Shown here piece after piece: positions 33,957-48,529 of a DNA stretch of 64,000 nt. The position numbers were made by a program, and so were the translations under genes. Within the stretch, counting starts at the first letter, position 1; each line of letters starts with the position of its first letter. This DNA comes from Thermoanaerobaculia bacterium (GTDB lineage: Bacteria; Acidobacteriota; Thermoanaerobaculia; Multivoradales; J023): positions 248,001-312,000 of the forward strand of contig JAUIJL010000003.1 of assembly GCA_030431255.1 (NCBI GenBank), read 5' to 3'. Below the pieces are notes generated by a model. It was not told where the DNA came from, did no database searches, and saw only the letters and a list, made by a program, of their open reading frames with translations.

Positions 33957-35222
33957 TTGGACAACGCAGATCGATCCGATGATGTGAGAAGCGCCGGCGC
34001 CGTCGAGTGGTTGGAGAGTGCGGAACGATACCGCGACGATTTGGTACGCCTGCTTCGCGACCTGATTGCCATTCCCGCCGAGAGCTGCCGCGAGGAGGCG
34101 CGCTGCCGCCGCCTCAAGCAAGAGCTCGACCGCCTGGGGTTTGAGCAAGTTTTCTTCGACCCCCTGGGAACCGTGGTGACGCGCATCGGAAACGGGCCCA
34201 AGGTTCTGTGGATGGACGGACATATCGATACCGTCGGAGTCGGTGATCCCGCGTCTTGGGAGCACGATCCCTTTGTCGGCAAATTCGAAAACGGTGAGAT
34301 TTGGGGTCGGGGAGCCGTCGACGAGCTGCCCGGGGTCGTCTGCATGGCCTACGGCGCCAAAGTGCTCATGGACCGCGGGATTCCCGACGATCTCACCCTC
34401 TATCTAACCGCTTCGGTAATGGAAGAGCCGTCCGAAGGTCTGGGGCCCGATCACTTCCTCGATTACATCGAGGAGCTGGGGTGGCCGAAACCCCAAGCTG
34501 TGGTGTTGGGAGAGCCCACGGATATGGCGATCTATCGCGGTCAGCGAGGACGTCTGGAAGCGGTGATCACCCTGCACGGCCGGGCCGCCCACGGGGCTCA
34601 ACCGGACCTCGGGGTCAACGCCCTTTATCGGGCCGGTGAGGTGTTGGCGGATTTACAGAAACTCTCCGGCCAATTGGGATCGGACCCGTTTCTGGGCCCA
34701 GGAACCCTGGTGGCGTCCGATGTGGAATGCGCCACGCCGTCACGTAACGCGGTGCCCGACTTGGTCCGAGTCTTCGTCGATCGCCGGCTGACCCTCGGCG
34801 AGACCCCGGAGCAGGCGTTGGAACAATTGCGAAGCCTGCCCAGCCTCAGCCGCGATGTGGAAGGAGTGGGCCCTGGAACCGTGGAAGTGGTGGGTTTTCA
34901 GGCGGAAGCCTGGACCGGTCGAGAGGTTCGTCAAGAAAAGGTCTATCCCACTTGGGTGGTGCCCGAATCCCATGATTTGGTGACCGCCGCGGCAAAGGCG
35001 GTGGAGGATGTCTTGGGTCACCCGCCGAGCATAGGTTGTTGGTCGTTCTCCACCAACGGCGTATCCACCATGGGTCGGCACGGCATTCCCACCGTTGGTT
35101 TTGCGCCCGGACTCGAAGATTTGGCGCACACCAATCGGGAACGGGTGGCGGTGGACGATCTCGTCAAGGCGACGGCGGTCTACGCCAGGATGTCGGAGCA
35201 ATTCGCCCGGCGAGCATCTTGA
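33957..35222 (+). CDS. YgeY-type M20 hydrolase
   Basis: 421-residue zinc hydrolase of the YgeY branch. Motifs: MDGHIDTVGVGD (His, Asp), GRGAVDELPGVVCM (bridging Asp; the usual DxKG is here DELP), VMEEPSEGLG (Glu pair), and the branch-specific CWSFSTNGVSTMGRHGIPTVGF near the C-terminus, ending with an AHTNRE His. TTG start at 33957 is preceded by AGGAGACC at 33942-33949. In E. coli and gut anaerobes ygeY lies beside ygeX (diaminopropionate ammonia-lyase) and hydantoinase in purine-ring breakdown clusters; the chemical role of YgeY is not well defined. Confidence 0.88.
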   Translation: MDNADRSDDVRSAGAVEWLESAERYRDDLVRLLRDLIAIPAESCREEARCRRLKQELDRLGFEQVFFDPLGTVVTRIGNGPKVLWMDGHIDTVGVGDPASWEHDPFVGKFENGEIWGRGAVDELPGVVCMAYGAKVLMDRGIPDDLTLYLTASVMEEPSEGLGPDHFLDYIEELGWPKPQAVVLGEPTDMAIYRGQRGRLEAVITLHGRAAHGAQPDLGVNALYRAGEVLADLQKLSGQLGSDPFLGPGTLVASDVECATPSRNAVPDLVRVFVDRRLTLGETPEQALEQLRSLPSLSRDVEGVGPGTVEVVGFQAEAWTGREVRQEKVYPTWVVPESHDLVTAAAKAVEDVLGHPPSIGCWSFSTNGVSTMGRHGIPTVGFAPGLEDLAHTNRERVAVDDLVKATAVYARMSEQFARRAS

Positions 35223-35238
35223 TGGGCGTCTTGGCGCG

Positions 35239-36510
35239 ATGACGGAACACCGACTCCGTTGCACTGAGTGCAACACGTCCTACGCGCCCACGCCGACCCT
35301 CTTGGTTTGTCCGCAGTGCGCTCGACAGCAAGTGAAGGGTGAAGGGCTGCGAGGAGTGCTCGAGGTCGACATCCCGGAATTGGAAGCCAAGCTCTCCGAT
35401 GCCGGGGGACGACCCTGGTGGCGTCGCGAAAGCTTCGACTTTCTGCTGCCGGTGAGACCCGACGGTGGCCGCAGGGAGGTCGCCGTCGGGGGCACGCCCC
35501 TGCTGAGAGCGACTCAGCTGGGTCGTGATCTCGGGCTGCGCCATCTGTGGATCAAAGACGATACCCGCAATTCCAGTGGCTCCACCAAGGATCGAGCCTC
35601 GGATTTGGTCGTGCGCAAGGCCCTGGAATTCGGATTCGAGACCGTTGCCGTGGCGTCGACCGGAAACGCGGCTACTGCCCTGGCCGCCTCGTCCGCCGCT
35701 GCCGGGCTGGATGCGGTGGTCTTCGTGCCGGCTCAAGCACCTCCCGCGAAGCTGGTGCAGATGGCCAGCTACGGGGCTCGGGTGCTCGCCATCGACGGCA
35801 GCTACGATCAAGCGTTCGAGCTCTGCTTGGCCGCCTGCGATCGATGGGGTTGGTACAACCGCAACACGGCTCTCAACCCGTTCACCATCGAGGGCAAGAA
35901 GACCGCGGGGCTTGAAATCGCCGCGCAGCTGCATCCCCAAGAGCCCGACGTCGTTTTAGTGCCCACCGGCGACGGAGTGATTTTGGCGGGCATTGCCAAA
36001 GGGTTCGACGATTTGTTCAAGGCCGGAGCTTTGCGCCGTCGGCCACGGCTGATCGCGGTTCAACCCGAGGGCTCATCCGCTATTGTTCGAGCCTGGGAAG
36101 CAGGCCTCGACGCTCCCGAGGCGATCCTAGGCGCCGCCAGCGTTGCCGATAGCCTGGTAGTGGACGCGCCGCGCAACGGCAGGTTGTGCTTGGCCAAGAT
36201 TCGGCAATCGGAAGGCGCTGCGCTCGCGGTATCGGATCGTGAGATCGTGGCTTCTATTCAGGGTCTGGCCCGCCGGTCCGGAGTATTTGCCGAGCCTGCC
36301 GCCGCCGCCGTATTGGCGGGCCTGGAGCGGGCCGTGCAAAGGAAATGGGTGGATCCGGACGAGCGTATCGTGTTGATGGTTACCGGCACGGGTCTCAAGG
36401 ATGTCGGCGCGGCGGCTGAGGGGCTCCAGGATCAACCCGTGATCCCACCCAGCTTGGACGCGGTGGAAGAGCGGCTCGCAACCTGGCCCGAGCCTAAACG
36501 CAGCATCTGA
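35239..36510 (+). CDS. Threonine synthase-like PLP enzyme
   Basis: 423-residue PLP fold II enzyme. An N-terminal zinc ribbon (CTECNTSYAP...CPQC) typical of one class of threonine synthases precedes the catalytic domain. The PLP Lys is in SSGSTKDRAS, the glycine loop in VLVPTGDG, and ASTGNAATALAA binds substrate. Threonine synthase makes Thr from O-phosphohomoserine. Its place inside a degradative operon, with no thrA/thrB nearby, suggests it may instead act on a breakdown product. ATG 35239 is 16 nt after ygeY; the upstream open frame overlaps that gene and is rejected. Confidence 0.88.
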   Translation: MTEHRLRCTECNTSYAPTPTLLVCPQCARQQVKGEGLRGVLEVDIPELEAKLSDAGGRPWWRRESFDFLLPVRPDGGRREVAVGGTPLLRATQLGRDLGLRHLWIKDDTRNSSGSTKDRASDLVVRKALEFGFETVAVASTGNAATALAASSAAAGLDAVVFVPAQAPPAKLVQMASYGARVLAIDGSYDQAFELCLAACDRWGWYNRNTALNPFTIEGKKTAGLEIAAQLHPQEPDVVLVPTGDGVILAGIAKGFDDLFKAGALRRRPRLIAVQPEGSSAIVRAWEAGLDAPEAILGAASVADSLVVDAPRNGRLCLAKIRQSEGAALAVSDREIVASIQGLARRSGVFAEPAAAAVLAGLERAVQRKWVDPDERIVLMVTGTGLKDVGAAAEGLQDQPVIPPSLDAVEERLATWPEPKRSI

Positions 36511-40198: not shown

Positions 40199-40717
40199 TC
40201 AGCACTTCAAGTTGTCGATTCTCCGGGCGTTGTCGTCCAATCGCTTGGAATTGTTGTCCAGGCGGGTGGCGTTGGCGTCCAATCGTTGGGCGTTTTCGTC
40301 CAGGCGCCGGGAGTTCTCGTCAATCCGTTCGCCGTTGGCGTCGAGACGTTGGGCGTTGGCGTCGAGGCGTTGGGCGTTTTCGTCCAGCTTCCGGCCCACG
40401 TCATCCATGCGTTTGGTGTTTCCGTCCAATCGTTGGGCGTTGGCGTCCAATCGTTGGGAATTGGCATCCAGGCGGGCCGCGTTCTCGTCAAGTCGCTTGG
40501 CATTGATGTCGAGCTTGGTGCCGTTCGCTTCGAGGGTCCGACCGTTGGCGTCCAAGCGCCGAGCGTTGGCGTCCAGCCGTTTGGAATTCCCGTCCAGTCG
40601 TTCGAGTGCGTCGTCGAGCTTCAACGCATTGGCTTCGAGCAGCCGTCGATTTTCATCCAACCGATCGAGAATTGCATCAAGCTTGCTGTCCAGGTAGGCC
40701 TTCAGCTCAGGGTCCAT
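40199..40717 (-). CDS. LDxN heptad-repeat coiled-coil protein
   Basis: 172-residue protein made almost wholly of heptads of the form RLDANAQ: about 22 consecutive copies with Leu at one core position and mostly Asn or Asp three residues later. There is no signal peptide or membrane segment, and the last residue is a lone Cys (NLKC). The regular phase predicts one uninterrupted rod-like helix or coiled coil of about 23 nm if fully helical. ATG 40717 is preceded by AGGAGGA at ideal spacing, and the gene ends in a good terminator, so it is surely expressed. I recognise no family. It could be a structural filament, spacer or toxin-chaperone-like shield; all are guesses. Confidence 0.85.
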   Translation of the reverse strand: MDPELKAYLDSKLDAILDRLDENRRLLEANALKLDDALERLDGNSKRLDANARRLDANGRTLEANGTKLDINAKRLDENAARLDANSQRLDANAQRLDGNTKRMDDVGRKLDENAQRLDANAQRLDANGERIDENSRRLDENAQRLDANATRLDNNSKRLDDNARRIDNLKC

Positions 40718-44417: not shown

Positions 44418-47400
44418 GTGGTTCCCTTTGAGCACGATTTGGGAATGACGGCGGTCCTCGGGAATCGGCCATCCTTCTCCCAAAAATCCATAAAGGCCTC
44501 AGTGAGGATCGGCCGGATGGAAGCGGGTTTATCCAAGGACCGGCTCCCAAGGATCCAGCCGACTCGCAGACCCGTCTACGACGATACGAGAAAACCGCAG
44601 ATGCGATTGTTCCTCGCCGTTCCCCAAGATCTAGAGGCAGAGCGCCAGGTGGCACATCAGGTGGTTGCGGCCCTGAACGCTCAATCCGGATTGCCGGAAG
44701 GTGATCCCAACCACATCCAGGTCGTCGATTGGCACCGCACGGCGGCGCCGCTGACCACTCTTCCCGAAAGCGTGGCTTTCAGGAATTTGGATATTCAAGA
44801 GCAAGACCTTTTCGTCGGTTTTACCTGGTTGGGATTCGACGACGATGAGCGGGGACAATCCGAGCGCTCGATTTGCTCCGAGCGTGAAATGGAGCTGGCG
44901 TACAGCTATTGGAAAAGCATGCGCCGCCCACGAGCCCTCTTCCTGCGTTGCCTGAAGCTGCCTGAAAAGCTCAAAGATATCGACGCGCGCCGCTTTGACC
45001 GGGTCAGTCTGTTCTACAACCGTTTCGACTCACCCGAGAAAAACCGTTTTTCCTACCAAGAGTTTCACTCCGCCGGCGAGCTGGAGCAGCTCTTCGAGCG
45101 GCAGATTCGGACCCTGGTCGCCGAGGATCGGCCGGTGGTTCCGCCGACTCGCTCGCGCAGCCAGCTCCGGGGCACCACCCAATTCGAGAAGAAGATGGAG
45201 CCTGGAAAGGCCTATGAGGTGACCTTCCTGAGCTTCGAAATCGCGGATTGGAACACCTTGGTCCAAGAGCATGAGGCGGACAAAGGAAAGCTTCAGATCC
45301 TGGCGGGCTCTTTGCTCGAGCTGGTCCGCAGCACCTCCAAGGTTTACGGTGGGGAAGTCTTCTCTTGGACCGCCAAGGGCGGTCTGATGATGTTCTGGGC
45401 CAAACGCAGCTTCGACCACGCCATCATGAGCGGCTTGAAGGTGCTGCACAACCTACCGGTCTTCAATCTGGATCCTCAGCAGAATCCCTTGCAGCAAAAT
45501 GTCGGCCTGCGGGTCGCGGCCCACGACGCGGTGATCGTCTTTCAGCTGCCAATCGAGGAAATCTCCTCCTCGGACATCCATTTCGTCACCGCCCTCCAAG
45601 CGGAGAACACCTCTTCCGACGAGCTTTCCATCACCCGCCGGCTGCTCGATCGCATCGATGAGCGTTTGCGTCCCCATTTCAAATTTAAGGGTCGCTACGA
45701 CCGGGAGCCCATCTACTCCTGCAAGCTACCCGCGACCGAGCAGGATTCGGCGACGGCGGATCTCGACGAGCATCTGGTGGCGGTCAAGCGCCAGACCTCT
45801 TTGGCCATGGGTTTGCTCCAGGGGCCGGCCTCGGGTTTGGACGTCTCGGCGGCAGATTCATTGGCCACCGCGGTCGACGAAACCTATGCCGCCCTCCAGC
45901 GTTTTTGCCACACCTTCAGCTCGATCGATCGCTCTTGGGCGACGGGATTCTTCCACCAGCTTCTGGTGGCCACCACCACCCTGAGAAAAGAAGAGGAGGC
46001 CCTCTGGGGCCTGCTGAGGCAGCGGATCTCCGAAGGCAGCATGGAATCCGGCACGGTCCGGCGCCTCAAGGCTCTGGCCCAAGCCGCGTCGCGACGTCGA
46101 GCTCGGCCGGTCGTGATCCTGGAGAAGCTCGAGGAAAGATGTCGAGTCTTGGCCGCCGGGGCCGAGCCGGCGGCCACGCCACAACAAGCCCAAGCCCAGG
46201 CCGCAGATGTCATCAAGCAAATCGACCGCTTCGTCAAAGCGGACGAGCTGGACAGCGAAACCGCGCTGACCGAGCTGTTGATGCATCATAAAAGAGGCTT
46301 CCTGACCTACATCCTGGAACACGGATCCGACACCGAGCGGCATCAGCGTTTAACCCGTAAGCTCTGGGAAAACGCCGATTTGGCCCTGCTCGACGATCTC
46401 TACTCGATTCGCGGCCATCGGCGGTCCGACGAGGCGCGCATCTTCGATGCGCTGATCCAACCCCAGGTGGGCCAAGCACGTTTCCAAGTCGTGCGTATTC
46501 TGCTCGAAAGCGAGGACAAACCCGAAGAGGTGGTCATCGGTCACTACTTCGAGCGCTTCAACTTGCGGCCGGTGGCCCAAGATCTTCAGGTGGTTTGGCG
46601 TTGCATGGTGCTCGGTCATCCGGAGGAGAGCATCCGTGGCTTCTCGGCCCTCAAGCTCAACCAAAGCTCCATGTGGCAGGTGGTCTCCCACCCTTCCATA
46701 CCCATCGCCAGCATCCTAGCCATCGGCGAGCGCATGTCGAAGCTCGAAGGGGAAGACGCCAAAAAGATCTTCTTCGACTGCATCCGCTCCCGGGTCGAGC
46801 AAGCGGTCGAAGGCTTCCGCAGCCGCGAAGAGCTGAACATCCTGACCAAGCTGATTCTTCAGATGTTGGGTTTCTCGTTCTTGGTGGAGACCGGCTACTT
46901 TGAACGCTTTGACGACCTGCTGCGCAAATTCCTCAACCGAGCCCAATCCATGGGCATGCAGGTGGAATATTTCGAAAAACTGCGCCAAACCCTGGAGCAG
47001 GCGCGCCAAGAGCACGGTGACCAAGGACCGGCCAAGCCGCCGGCCGGCATCAAGAGCCTGCCCCTGACGATCCAGCGTCGCCTAGCCGGCGAAGCACGCT
47101 ACATTTATTGGTTCGTCACCCATCCCGATCCGCGAATCGCCTGCGAGACCCTGCGCCATATCGGCCTCATGCATGTGGAGCGGGTCTTGAGGCTGCGGGA
47201 GATCAACAGCACGGTATTGCTGACCATTCTGCGCAAACCCGAGCTGTTCACCCGTCAGCAGGCGATCCTCTCGGCGCTGAATCATCCGAAATGCACCCAA
47301 GAATTCGCCAATAAATACATCTCTACCATGACGCGTTCGAGACAAGGGCGGCAGGCGCTTGGGAAGATTGCCCAAAACCCGTCCGCCAGCCCCGTGGTCC

Positions 47401-47453
47401 GCTCCACCGCCAAACGGGCGGTCGACAACGCGGCCCGTCGTGGGCAGAGATAG
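44418..47453 (+). CDS. DUF4062-like/pseudo-cyclase/helical-repeat protein
   Basis: 1011-residue multidomain protein I cannot match to a described family. Residues about 62-235 resemble DUF4062, a TIR-like domain found in STAND-type defence proteins (MRLFLAVPQDLEAERQVA; DLFVGFTWLGF; SEREMELAYSYW; PRALFLRC). Residues about 264-437 follow the class III nucleotidyl cyclase pattern, but the two metal-binding Asp are lost: FEIADWNT for FxDIxGFT and TAKGGLMMFW for GDGFMAVF. The remaining 570 residues are all-helical, ending in HEAT-like units. No membrane segment. Start GTG 44418, ATG 44517 (GAGGAT upstream) or ATG 44601 are all possible. Monocistronic, between a hydrolase and a CBS-like gene. A ligand-sensing defence or stress protein is the best guess. 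Confidence 0.8.
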   Translation: MVPFEHDLGMTAVLGNRPSFSQKSIKASVRIGRMEAGLSKDRLPRIQPTRRPVYDDTRKPQMRLFLAVPQDLEAERQVAHQVVAALNAQSGLPEGDPNHIQVVDWHRTAAPLTTLPESVAFRNLDIQEQDLFVGFTWLGFDDDERGQSERSICSEREMELAYSYWKSMRRPRALFLRCLKLPEKLKDIDARRFDRVSLFYNRFDSPEKNRFSYQEFHSAGELEQLFERQIRTLVAEDRPVVPPTRSRSQLRGTTQFEKKMEPGKAYEVTFLSFEIADWNTLVQEHEADKGKLQILAGSLLELVRSTSKVYGGEVFSWTAKGGLMMFWAKRSFDHAIMSGLKVLHNLPVFNLDPQQNPLQQNVGLRVAAHDAVIVFQLPIEEISSSDIHFVTALQAENTSSDELSITRRLLDRIDERLRPHFKFKGRYDREPIYSCKLPATEQDSATADLDEHLVAVKRQTSLAMGLLQGPASGLDVSAADSLATAVDETYAALQRFCHTFSSIDRSWATGFFHQLLVATTTLRKEEEALWGLLRQRISEGSMESGTVRRLKALAQAASRRRARPVVILEKLEERCRVLAAGAEPAATPQQAQAQAADVIKQIDRFVKADELDSETALTELLMHHKRGFLTYILEHGSDTERHQRLTRKLWENADLALLDDLYSIRGHRRSDEARIFDALIQPQVGQARFQVVRILLESEDKPEEVVIGHYFERFNLRPVAQDLQVVWRCMVLGHPEESIRGFSALKLNQSSMWQVVSHPSIPIASILAIGERMSKLEGEDAKKIFFDCIRSRVEQAVEGFRSREELNILTKLILQMLGFSFLVETGYFERFDDLLRKFLNRAQSMGMQVEYFEKLRQTLEQARQEHGDQGPAKPPAGIKSLPLTIQRRLAGEARYIYWFVTHPDPRIACETLRHIGLMHVERVLRLREINSTVLLTILRKPELFTRQQAILSALNHPKCTQEFANKYISTMTRSRQGRQALGKIAQNPSASPVVRSTAKRAVDNAARRGQR

Positions 47454-47474
47454 ACCCTATGTAAATGTGGAGTC

Positions 47475-47530
47475 TCGTCTGTGATATCTCGTCGGTGATT
47501 TTTCGTCTGTGATTTTTCGTCTGTGGCCGA
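47475..47530. repeat. 14-bp tandem repeat upstream of CBS-like gene
   Basis: Four 14-bp units: TCGTCTGTGATATC, TCGTCGGTGATTTT, TCGTCTGTGATTTT and TCGTCTGTGGCCGA. It ends 33 bp before the ATG of the cystathionine beta-synthase-like gene and starts 22 bp after the preceding stop. Confidence 0.9.
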
Positions 47531-47563
47531 ACGATGGCCCAGCCCCTGTGTTAAAGGAAGAAC

Positions 47564-48529
47564 ATGATTTACGACAATATTCTGCAGTGCATCGGTCAGA
47601 CTCCGGTGGTTCGATTGCAAAGAATCGGCGCCGACCTACCTGTTGAGCTCTTCGCCAAATGTGAGTTCATGAACCCGGGTGGCTCGACCAAAGATCGCAT
47701 CGCCCATCGGATGGTCGAAGGCCTCGAAGCTTCCGGCGCCATCGACTCCGAAACCGTGCTGATCGAACCCACCAGCGGCAATACCGGAACCGGTTTGGCG
47801 ATGACCGCGGCGGTCAAGGGCTATCGATTGATCATCACCATGCCCGAGAAGATGTCCCAAGAAAAGCAAGTGGTGATGGAGGCTTTGGGGGCGGAGATCA
47901 TCCGCACTCCCACCGAGGCCGGGCACGACGATCCAGAGAGTCTCTTCGGGGTCGCCCTACGATTGGAGAAAGAGCTGCCGAACGCGAAAATCCCCAATCA
48001 ATACGACAATCCCGACAATCCCGGAGCCCACTACCACGGCACGGGCAAGGAAATTTGGGACGATTTCGGCGAGGATCTCGACTTGGTGGTGCTGACGGCC
48101 GGCACCGGTGGCACGATCACCGGTATCGCGCGCTATCTCAAAGAAAAGAATCCCAACATCAAAATCGTCGGCATCGATCCCGAGGGCTCGGTGCTGGGCG
48201 GGCGAGACGAGGTCACGACCTATCAGGTGGAAGGCATCGGATACGACTTCATCCCCGATGTGCTCGACCGCGATTTGGTCGACGCCTGGATCTACTCCAA
48301 TGATCGCGACAGCTTCCAGATGGCCCGGCGTCTGATCCAAGAAGAGGGGCTTTTGGTCGGGGGTAGCTCCGGCGCCGCGGTTTGGGGGCTGCTCGAAGCG
48401 CTCAAGCTCTACCCGGACACCAAAAAAGCGCTGACTCTGCTGCCGGACTCGATTCGCAACTATCTGTCGAAATTCGTCAACGACCAATGGATGGCGGAGC
48501 ACGGATTCGCCGACGAAGCCGAGGGCTGA
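47564..48529 (+). CDS. Cystathionine beta-synthase-type PLP enzyme, catalytic core only
   Basis: 321-residue PLP fold II enzyme. PLP Lys in NPGGSTKDRIA, TSGNTGTGLA loop, GTGGTITGIARYLK phosphate loop. Features shared with cystathionine beta-synthase rather than CysK: NQYDNPDNPGAHYHGTGKEI, VEGIGYDFIPDVLDR and the C-terminal LPDSIRNYLSKFVNDQWM. It lacks the haem domain and the C-terminal Bateman (CBS) domains of the mammalian enzyme, so would not be regulated by S-adenosylmethionine. Likely makes cystathionine from serine and homocysteine, or cysteine; no cystathionine lyase is nearby. Ribosome site AAAGGAAGAAC before ATG 47564. Confidence 0.92.
   Translation: MIYDNILQCIGQTPVVRLQRIGADLPVELFAKCEFMNPGGSTKDRIAHRMVEGLEASGAIDSETVLIEPTSGNTGTGLAMTAAVKGYRLIITMPEKMSQEKQVVMEALGAEIIRTPTEAGHDDPESLFGVALRLEKELPNAKIPNQYDNPDNPGAHYHGTGKEIWDDFGEDLDLVVLTAGTGGTITGIARYLKEKNPNIKIVGIDPEGSVLGGRDEVTTYQVEGIGYDFIPDVLDRDLVDAWIYSNDRDSFQMARRLIQEEGLLVGGSSGAAVWGLLEALKLYPDTKKALTLLPDSIRNYLSKFVNDQWMAEHGFADEAEG

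What the first reader, a model, noticed from the sequence alone, without database searches (positions are those of the whole stretch)
44418..47453. DUF4062-like head fused to a metal-less cyclase-like domain and helical repeats
The head resembles the TIR-like DUF4062 domain of STAND defence proteins. The middle domain follows the class III cyclase outline but both metal Asp are replaced (FEIADWNT; TAKGGLMMFW), so it may bind a nucleotide without making a cyclic product. A long HEAT-like tail could be an oligomerisation or target-sensing arm. No NTPase (STAND) module is present, so this differs from known NLR-like proteins. It is a candidate single-gene defence or stress sensor.
Basis: partly seen in the sequence, partly recalled or inferred. 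Interest (0 to 1): 0.75.

Follow-up and report, generated by a model that had tools for sequence, protein, structure and literature searches.

The report
Dead-enzyme scaffold beside cysteine gene
A 950-residue protein of an acidobacterium joins two enzyme folds that have mostly lost their catalytic residues to a long helical arm; it is inherited within one bacterial family next to one amino-acid enzyme gene, so it is more likely a binding scaffold or regulator than a phage-defence enzyme.

Summary
The gene is real but starts at 44601 (950 aa), not 44418. Profile comparison shows a DUF4062-type (TIR/nucleoside-deoxyribosyltransferase fold) head; a structure model shows a class III cyclase fold in the middle (VIA-align Z 20.6). 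The rest is an all-helical tail; no NTPase was found. The cyclase fold lacks the second metal Asp and the transition-state Asn and Arg in all orthologues; the first metal Asp is Glu or Ala. The glutamate invariant in 23 of 23 other DUF4062 domains of the class is Glu only in this genome; orthologues have Asp, Asn, Asn, Asn, Ala. All three domains are under purifying selection in the one close pair measured. Orthologues occur only in one Thermoanaerobaculia family, in 6 of 7 genomes; in five of those six the next gene is the same cystathionine-beta-synthase/cysteine-synthase-like gene, though most else around is shuffled. No defence island is nearby. The last ~400 residues are a rare module also found behind a SIR2 NADase-type head and two Ser/Thr kinases, suggesting a head-swapping sensor arm. 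Best reading: a doubly degenerate, non-catalytic scaffold or sensor, perhaps acting with the neighbouring PLP enzyme.

The parts
44601..47453 (+). the gene, 950 aa with stop codon; start corrected from 44418
   Evidence: orthologue starts at MRLFLA
44601..45125 (+). head, residues 1-175: DUF4062-type TIR/NDT-like alpha/beta domain
   Evidence: hhalign 99.6%, E 5.8e-24; PDC-S60 2.6e-6; fold resembles DNPH1, MilB, TIR-STING at Z 8-9
44886..44888 (+). codon 96, position of the DUF4062 catalytic-type Glu: E here, D/N/N/N/A in orthologues
   Evidence: 23 of 23 other DUF4062 domains of the class have Glu
45126..45188 (+). variable linker, residues 176-196
   Evidence: no invariant column; pLDDT under 50 over residues 175-191
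45189..45731 (+). class III cyclase-fold domain, residues 197-377, without catalytic residues
   Evidence: VIA-align Z 20.6, rmsd 2.1, 166 aligned; hhalign 92%; residue table
45747..46247 (+). first part of the helical tail, residues 383-549
   Evidence: long helices in the model
46248..47450 (+). shared repeat module, residues 550-950, also behind SIR2 and Ser/Thr kinase heads; its last ~90 residues resemble a widespread acidobacterial repeat protein family
47564..48529 (+). neighbouring cystathionine-beta-synthase/cysteine-synthase-like PLP enzyme, 321 aa
   Evidence: PF00291 6.8e-74; TIGR01137 477.9 bits, below its cut-off of 510; adjacent in five of six family genomes that hold the gene

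Best explanation
A non-catalytic signalling scaffold. A TIR/NDT-fold head and a class III cyclase-fold domain, both derived from enzymes, now act as binding or dimerisation domains and are coupled to a helical repeat arm that recognises a partner. Gene order suggests that the partner or controlled process involves the adjacent PLP-dependent sulfur-amino-acid enzyme. Shown: the domain identities, loss of cyclase catalytic residues in all orthologues, loss of the NADase-type glutamate in most, purifying selection in one close pair, single-copy inheritance in one family, conserved adjacency to the PLP-enzyme gene, and sharing of the tail module with kinase and SIR2 proteins. Inferred: that the protein makes no product, that the folds still bind a ligand or each other, that the tail is the recognition arm, and that the PLP enzyme is a partner.
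For: Catalytic columns: metal site 2 (residues 260/261) has no Asp in any orthologue; the Asn position is H/Q/D/D/S and the Arg position A/G/N/E/E. Head glutamate column E/D/N/N/A, plus N in the sixth, against 23 of 23 Glu elsewhere. Between G003 and G006 dN is 0.071, 0.045 and 0.056 and dS 1.45, 1.12 and 1.32 for head, middle and tail. Even within the genus, the gene and the PLP enzyme are the only shared genes in the region compared. The 73-79% identical PLP enzyme occurs only in the five genomes where the two are adjacent; G004, whose copy is elsewhere, and G005, with no copy found, have only ~42% relatives.
Against: This genome's own copy keeps the glutamate (E96), so its head could still be active. 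Adjacency does not prove a shared role: the gap is 110 bp here and G004 has the gene without the close PLP enzyme. Loss of catalytic residues does not exclude a different chemistry. Nothing was tested biochemically.
Confidence: 0.5

Rival explanations
1. A Swarozyc-like abortive-infection protein: the DUF4062 head hydrolyses NAD+ when the tail senses a phage component, and the cyclase fold only oligomerises.
For: DUF4062 proteins are NADases and some protect against phages (PMC13174449); E96 is present in this copy; the tail also occurs behind a SIR2 head related to ThsA and Dsr2.
Against: Glutamate absent in five of six orthologues; single-copy, syntenic, not found in plasmids or viral contigs by the searches made; no specific defence neighbours.
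Confidence: 0.15
2. An allosteric nucleotide sensor: one or both degenerate pockets bind a nucleotide (ATP, NAD+, ADP-ribose or a cyclic nucleotide) without turnover and change tail binding.
For: Both folds are nucleotide-binding folds; the middle domain is strongly conserved (33% invariant over five orthologues), with invariant motifs AAHDA and NLDPxQNP.
Against: The residues that hold the phosphates through metals are lost; the conserved residues could equally form a protein interface. No ligand test was possible.
Confidence: 0.25
3. A head-swapping immune-type receptor family in Acidobacteriota: the shared tail is a sensor, and SIR2, kinase or DUF4062-cyclase heads are alternative outputs.
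For: The same ~400-residue tail follows SIR2 (G013) and Ser/Thr kinase (G387, G108) heads.
Against: Very few examples; the genes next to the kinases that were looked at have no obvious defence link; the window family looks like a resident gene.
Confidence: 0.1

Closest known systems
DUF4062 TIR-like NADases (Swarozyc, TEP1; PMC13174449)
   Same: homologous head domain; modular protein with accessory C-terminal parts
   Different: catalytic-type glutamate lost in most orthologues; accessory part is a cyclase fold plus repeat tail, not the winged-helix portal-binding domain of KpSwz; no NACHT domain as in TEP1
Class III nucleotide cyclases (Ma1120, Cya2, CyaC, RhoGC)
   Same: complete cyclase fold, Z about 20
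   Different: second metal Asp, Asn and Arg absent in all orthologues; first metal Asp is Glu or Ala
STAND/NLR-like defence proteins
   Same: N-terminal output-type domain plus long C-terminal repeats
   Different: no NTPase module; no defence context
SIR2-headed and Ser/Thr-kinase-headed proteins with the same tail (L015, L026, L027)
   Same: homologous ~400-residue C-terminal module
   Different: their heads carry the usual catalytic motifs by eye; no cyclase domain
PADLOC candidate PDC-S60
   Same: weak match of the head (2.6e-6 here, 8.9e-8 in G003)
   Different: match covers only about 165 of 906 profile positions

Membership tests
DUF4062 / Swarozyc NADases | TIR-like DUF4062 domain | tested here: met
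   hhalign 99.6%, E 5.8e-24; Pfam's own DUF4062 model does not reach it
DUF4062 / Swarozyc NADases | conserved catalytic glutamate | tested here: not met
   E in the window copy only; D/N/N/N/A in orthologues. That this column is the E97 of KpSwz is inferred from its invariance in 23 of 23 domains
DUF4062 / Swarozyc NADases | NAD+ hydrolysis | not testable with these tools
   needs an enzyme assay
DUF4062 / Swarozyc NADases | defence-island setting and horizontal spread | tested here: not met
   family-restricted with a conserved neighbour; no specific defence hits around. The source paper reports islands for only about 20% of homologues, so this alone is weak
Class III nucleotide cyclase | cyclase fold | tested here: met
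   VIA-align Z 20.6; Foldseek E 2.7e-9
Class III nucleotide cyclase | two metal-binding Asp | tested here: not met
   first is E or A, second is absent
Class III nucleotide cyclase | transition-state Asn and Arg | tested here: not met
   H/Q/D/D/S and A/G/N/E/E, aligned by secondary structure and motif
STAND/NLR-like | STAND/NACHT NTPase module | tested here: not met
   no Pfam, NCBIfam or model support for an NTPase
HEAT-repeat proteins | tandem two-helix HEAT units | tested here: inconclusive
   all-helical tail with middling matches to importins, CRM1 and AP2; no HEAT profile hit in this family

The most novel reading that the evidence does not exclude
A regulator built from two dead nucleotide enzymes that docks on, and controls, its neighbouring sulfur-amino-acid PLP enzyme, carrying a C-terminal sensor arm that other acidobacteria attach to SIR2 NADase or kinase heads: a head-swapping receptor family without an NTPase, in which one branch was domesticated for metabolism.
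Probability: 0.2. Interest if true: 0.7.

Novelty: new variant of a known kind. Interest (0 to 1): 0.5.

Why it matters
It would be a case of immune-type enzyme folds turned into a resident scaffold, and it points to a repeat module (residues 550-950) that is paired with three unrelated heads. It is also a caution for DUF4062-based defence prediction: the domain can be kept under selection after its NADase-type glutamate is gone.

Tried and rejected
Pfam, NCBIfam and PDB sequence searches gave nothing meaningful for the protein itself. A pattern search built on the eight-member tail alignment could not be made. Plasmids and viral contigs gave no relative. A phylum-wide search with the middle domain found only this family, so no intact cyclase relative could be shown. 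The apparent wide spread of the tail (145 of 396 genomes) comes mostly from the last ~90 residues, shared with a separate repeat-protein family; the rest of the tail is in 8 of 149 class genomes. An ancestral gene order with the threonine-synthase-like gene at 35095-36510 was dropped: identity to the genes next to the orthologues is only about 35%. Head matches in the structure search are not specific, since a GTPase and CENP-M score as high; the sequence profile carries that claim. No terminator was seen between the gene and the PLP-enzyme gene, but such scans are weak. Literature searches for degenerate cyclase domains gave nothing of use.

Full report
What is there. The frame at 44418-47453 is real. 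Complete orthologues start at the residues matching MRLFLAVPQD, and in two of them the frame is closed immediately upstream, so the gene is 44601-47453 and encodes 950 residues. The window lies in a 10.2 Mb genome. Named relatives found by DNA pattern search are Thermoanaerobaculia or Acidobacteriota metagenome bins.

Domains. The head is beyond the Pfam DUF4062 model, but a profile of five orthologues aligns over its length with six DUF4062 domains at 99.6% probability, while head against cyclase and middle against DUF4062 give under 1%. The middle domain aligns with class III cyclases at E 5.6e-7, and one orthologue also hits the Pycsar cyclase model PycC at 4.7e-5. AlphaFold models (full length pLDDT 70.7, residues 1-381 pLDDT 79.7) show an alpha/beta head, a complete cyclase fold matching Cya2, RhoGC and Ma1120 at Z about 20, and an all-helical tail. 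The alignments behind the models held only five or six sequences.

Catalytic residues. In 23 of 23 other DUF4062 domains of the class a glutamate stands three residues after the conserved [ST]-x-T position. In the alignment that column is residue 96: Glu in this genome, Asp in G001, Asn in G002, G003 and G006, Ala in G004. The published KpSwz catalytic residue is E97; that it is the same column is my inference. In the cyclase fold the first metal Asp is Glu or Ala, the second is Gly (Arg in one orthologue at residue 260, beside the invariant Gly261), and the Asn and Arg are missing. The protein looks like a double pseudoenzyme, with a reservation for the head of this one copy.

Selection. Between G003 and G006, nonsynonymous distances are 0.071 (head), 0.045 (middle) and 0.056 (tail) against synonymous distances of 1.1-1.5; the linker changes faster. 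The degenerate domains are therefore maintained. This rests on one pair, and the synonymous distances are near saturation.

Distribution and setting. Relatives over the whole length occur in six of seven genomes of the family (the seventh is 81% complete) and nowhere else among the genomes searched. In G000, G001, G002, G003 and G006 the next gene downstream, on the same strand after 41-114 bp, is a 73-79% identical PLP enzyme close to cystathionine beta-synthase and cysteine synthase. Between this genome and its congener these two are the only shared genes in the stretch compared. G004 has the gene in another setting and lacks the close PLP enzyme; G005 lacks both. The window's other genes are amino-acid and peptide enzymes, a two-component system, RNase III, MutL and the like; PADLOC hits around are generic kinase, histidine-kinase or receiver matches.

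The tail module. Residues 550-950 are homologous to the C-terminal parts of a SIR2-headed protein (L015) and two Ser/Thr kinases (L026, L027): hhalign 99.9%, E 4.6e-32. The SIR2 head matches ThsA and Dsr2 models, and its contig carries an IS66 transposase, a WapI-like immunity gene and a DUF3368/PIN-type gene. The module is rare: 8 of 149 genomes of the class and one clear case among 162 of another class. Its last ~90 residues resemble a separate repeat-protein family found in about a third of acidobacterial genomes.

Interpretation. One arm joined to different heads suggests sensing or docking by the arm and output by the head. In the window family the output enzymes are degenerate, so the output is likely binding: dimerisation, ligand sensing or control of a partner. 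The conserved PLP-enzyme neighbour is the best partner candidate; cysteine synthase is known to have protein partners beyond its pathway (PMC4961446, PMC5562914; titles and abstracts seen). This step is inference.

Verdict.

Noticed in passing
47453-47540: Four imperfect copies of a ~16-base direct repeat (TCGTCTGTGATTTT-like) lie between the gene and the PLP-enzyme gene.
   Followed up: no
40199-40717: A coiled-coil-like protein made of repeated RLDxNAxRLDAN heptads, with long open frames on the opposite strand caused by the repeats.
   Followed up: no
L068 and L069 (own genome, contig C24): Neighbouring genes of a ~350-450 aa repeat-protein family with NPKTPxxxA motifs, found in about a third of acidobacterial genomes; no Pfam family above cut-off, LRV_2 just below it in one member.
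   Followed up: partly
L079 (own genome, contig C15): A protein kinase fused to a ferredoxin-like stretch, a degenerate cyclase-like domain and a globin-like C-terminus by eye; L078 is a kinase fused to another degenerate cyclase-like domain and an ATPase. Degenerate cyclase domains seem common in this genome.
   Followed up: no
L015:10694-13165: SIR2-headed protein with the shared tail, near an IS66 transposase, a WapI-like immunity gene and a DUF3368/PIN-type gene: a candidate defence gene.
   Followed up: partly
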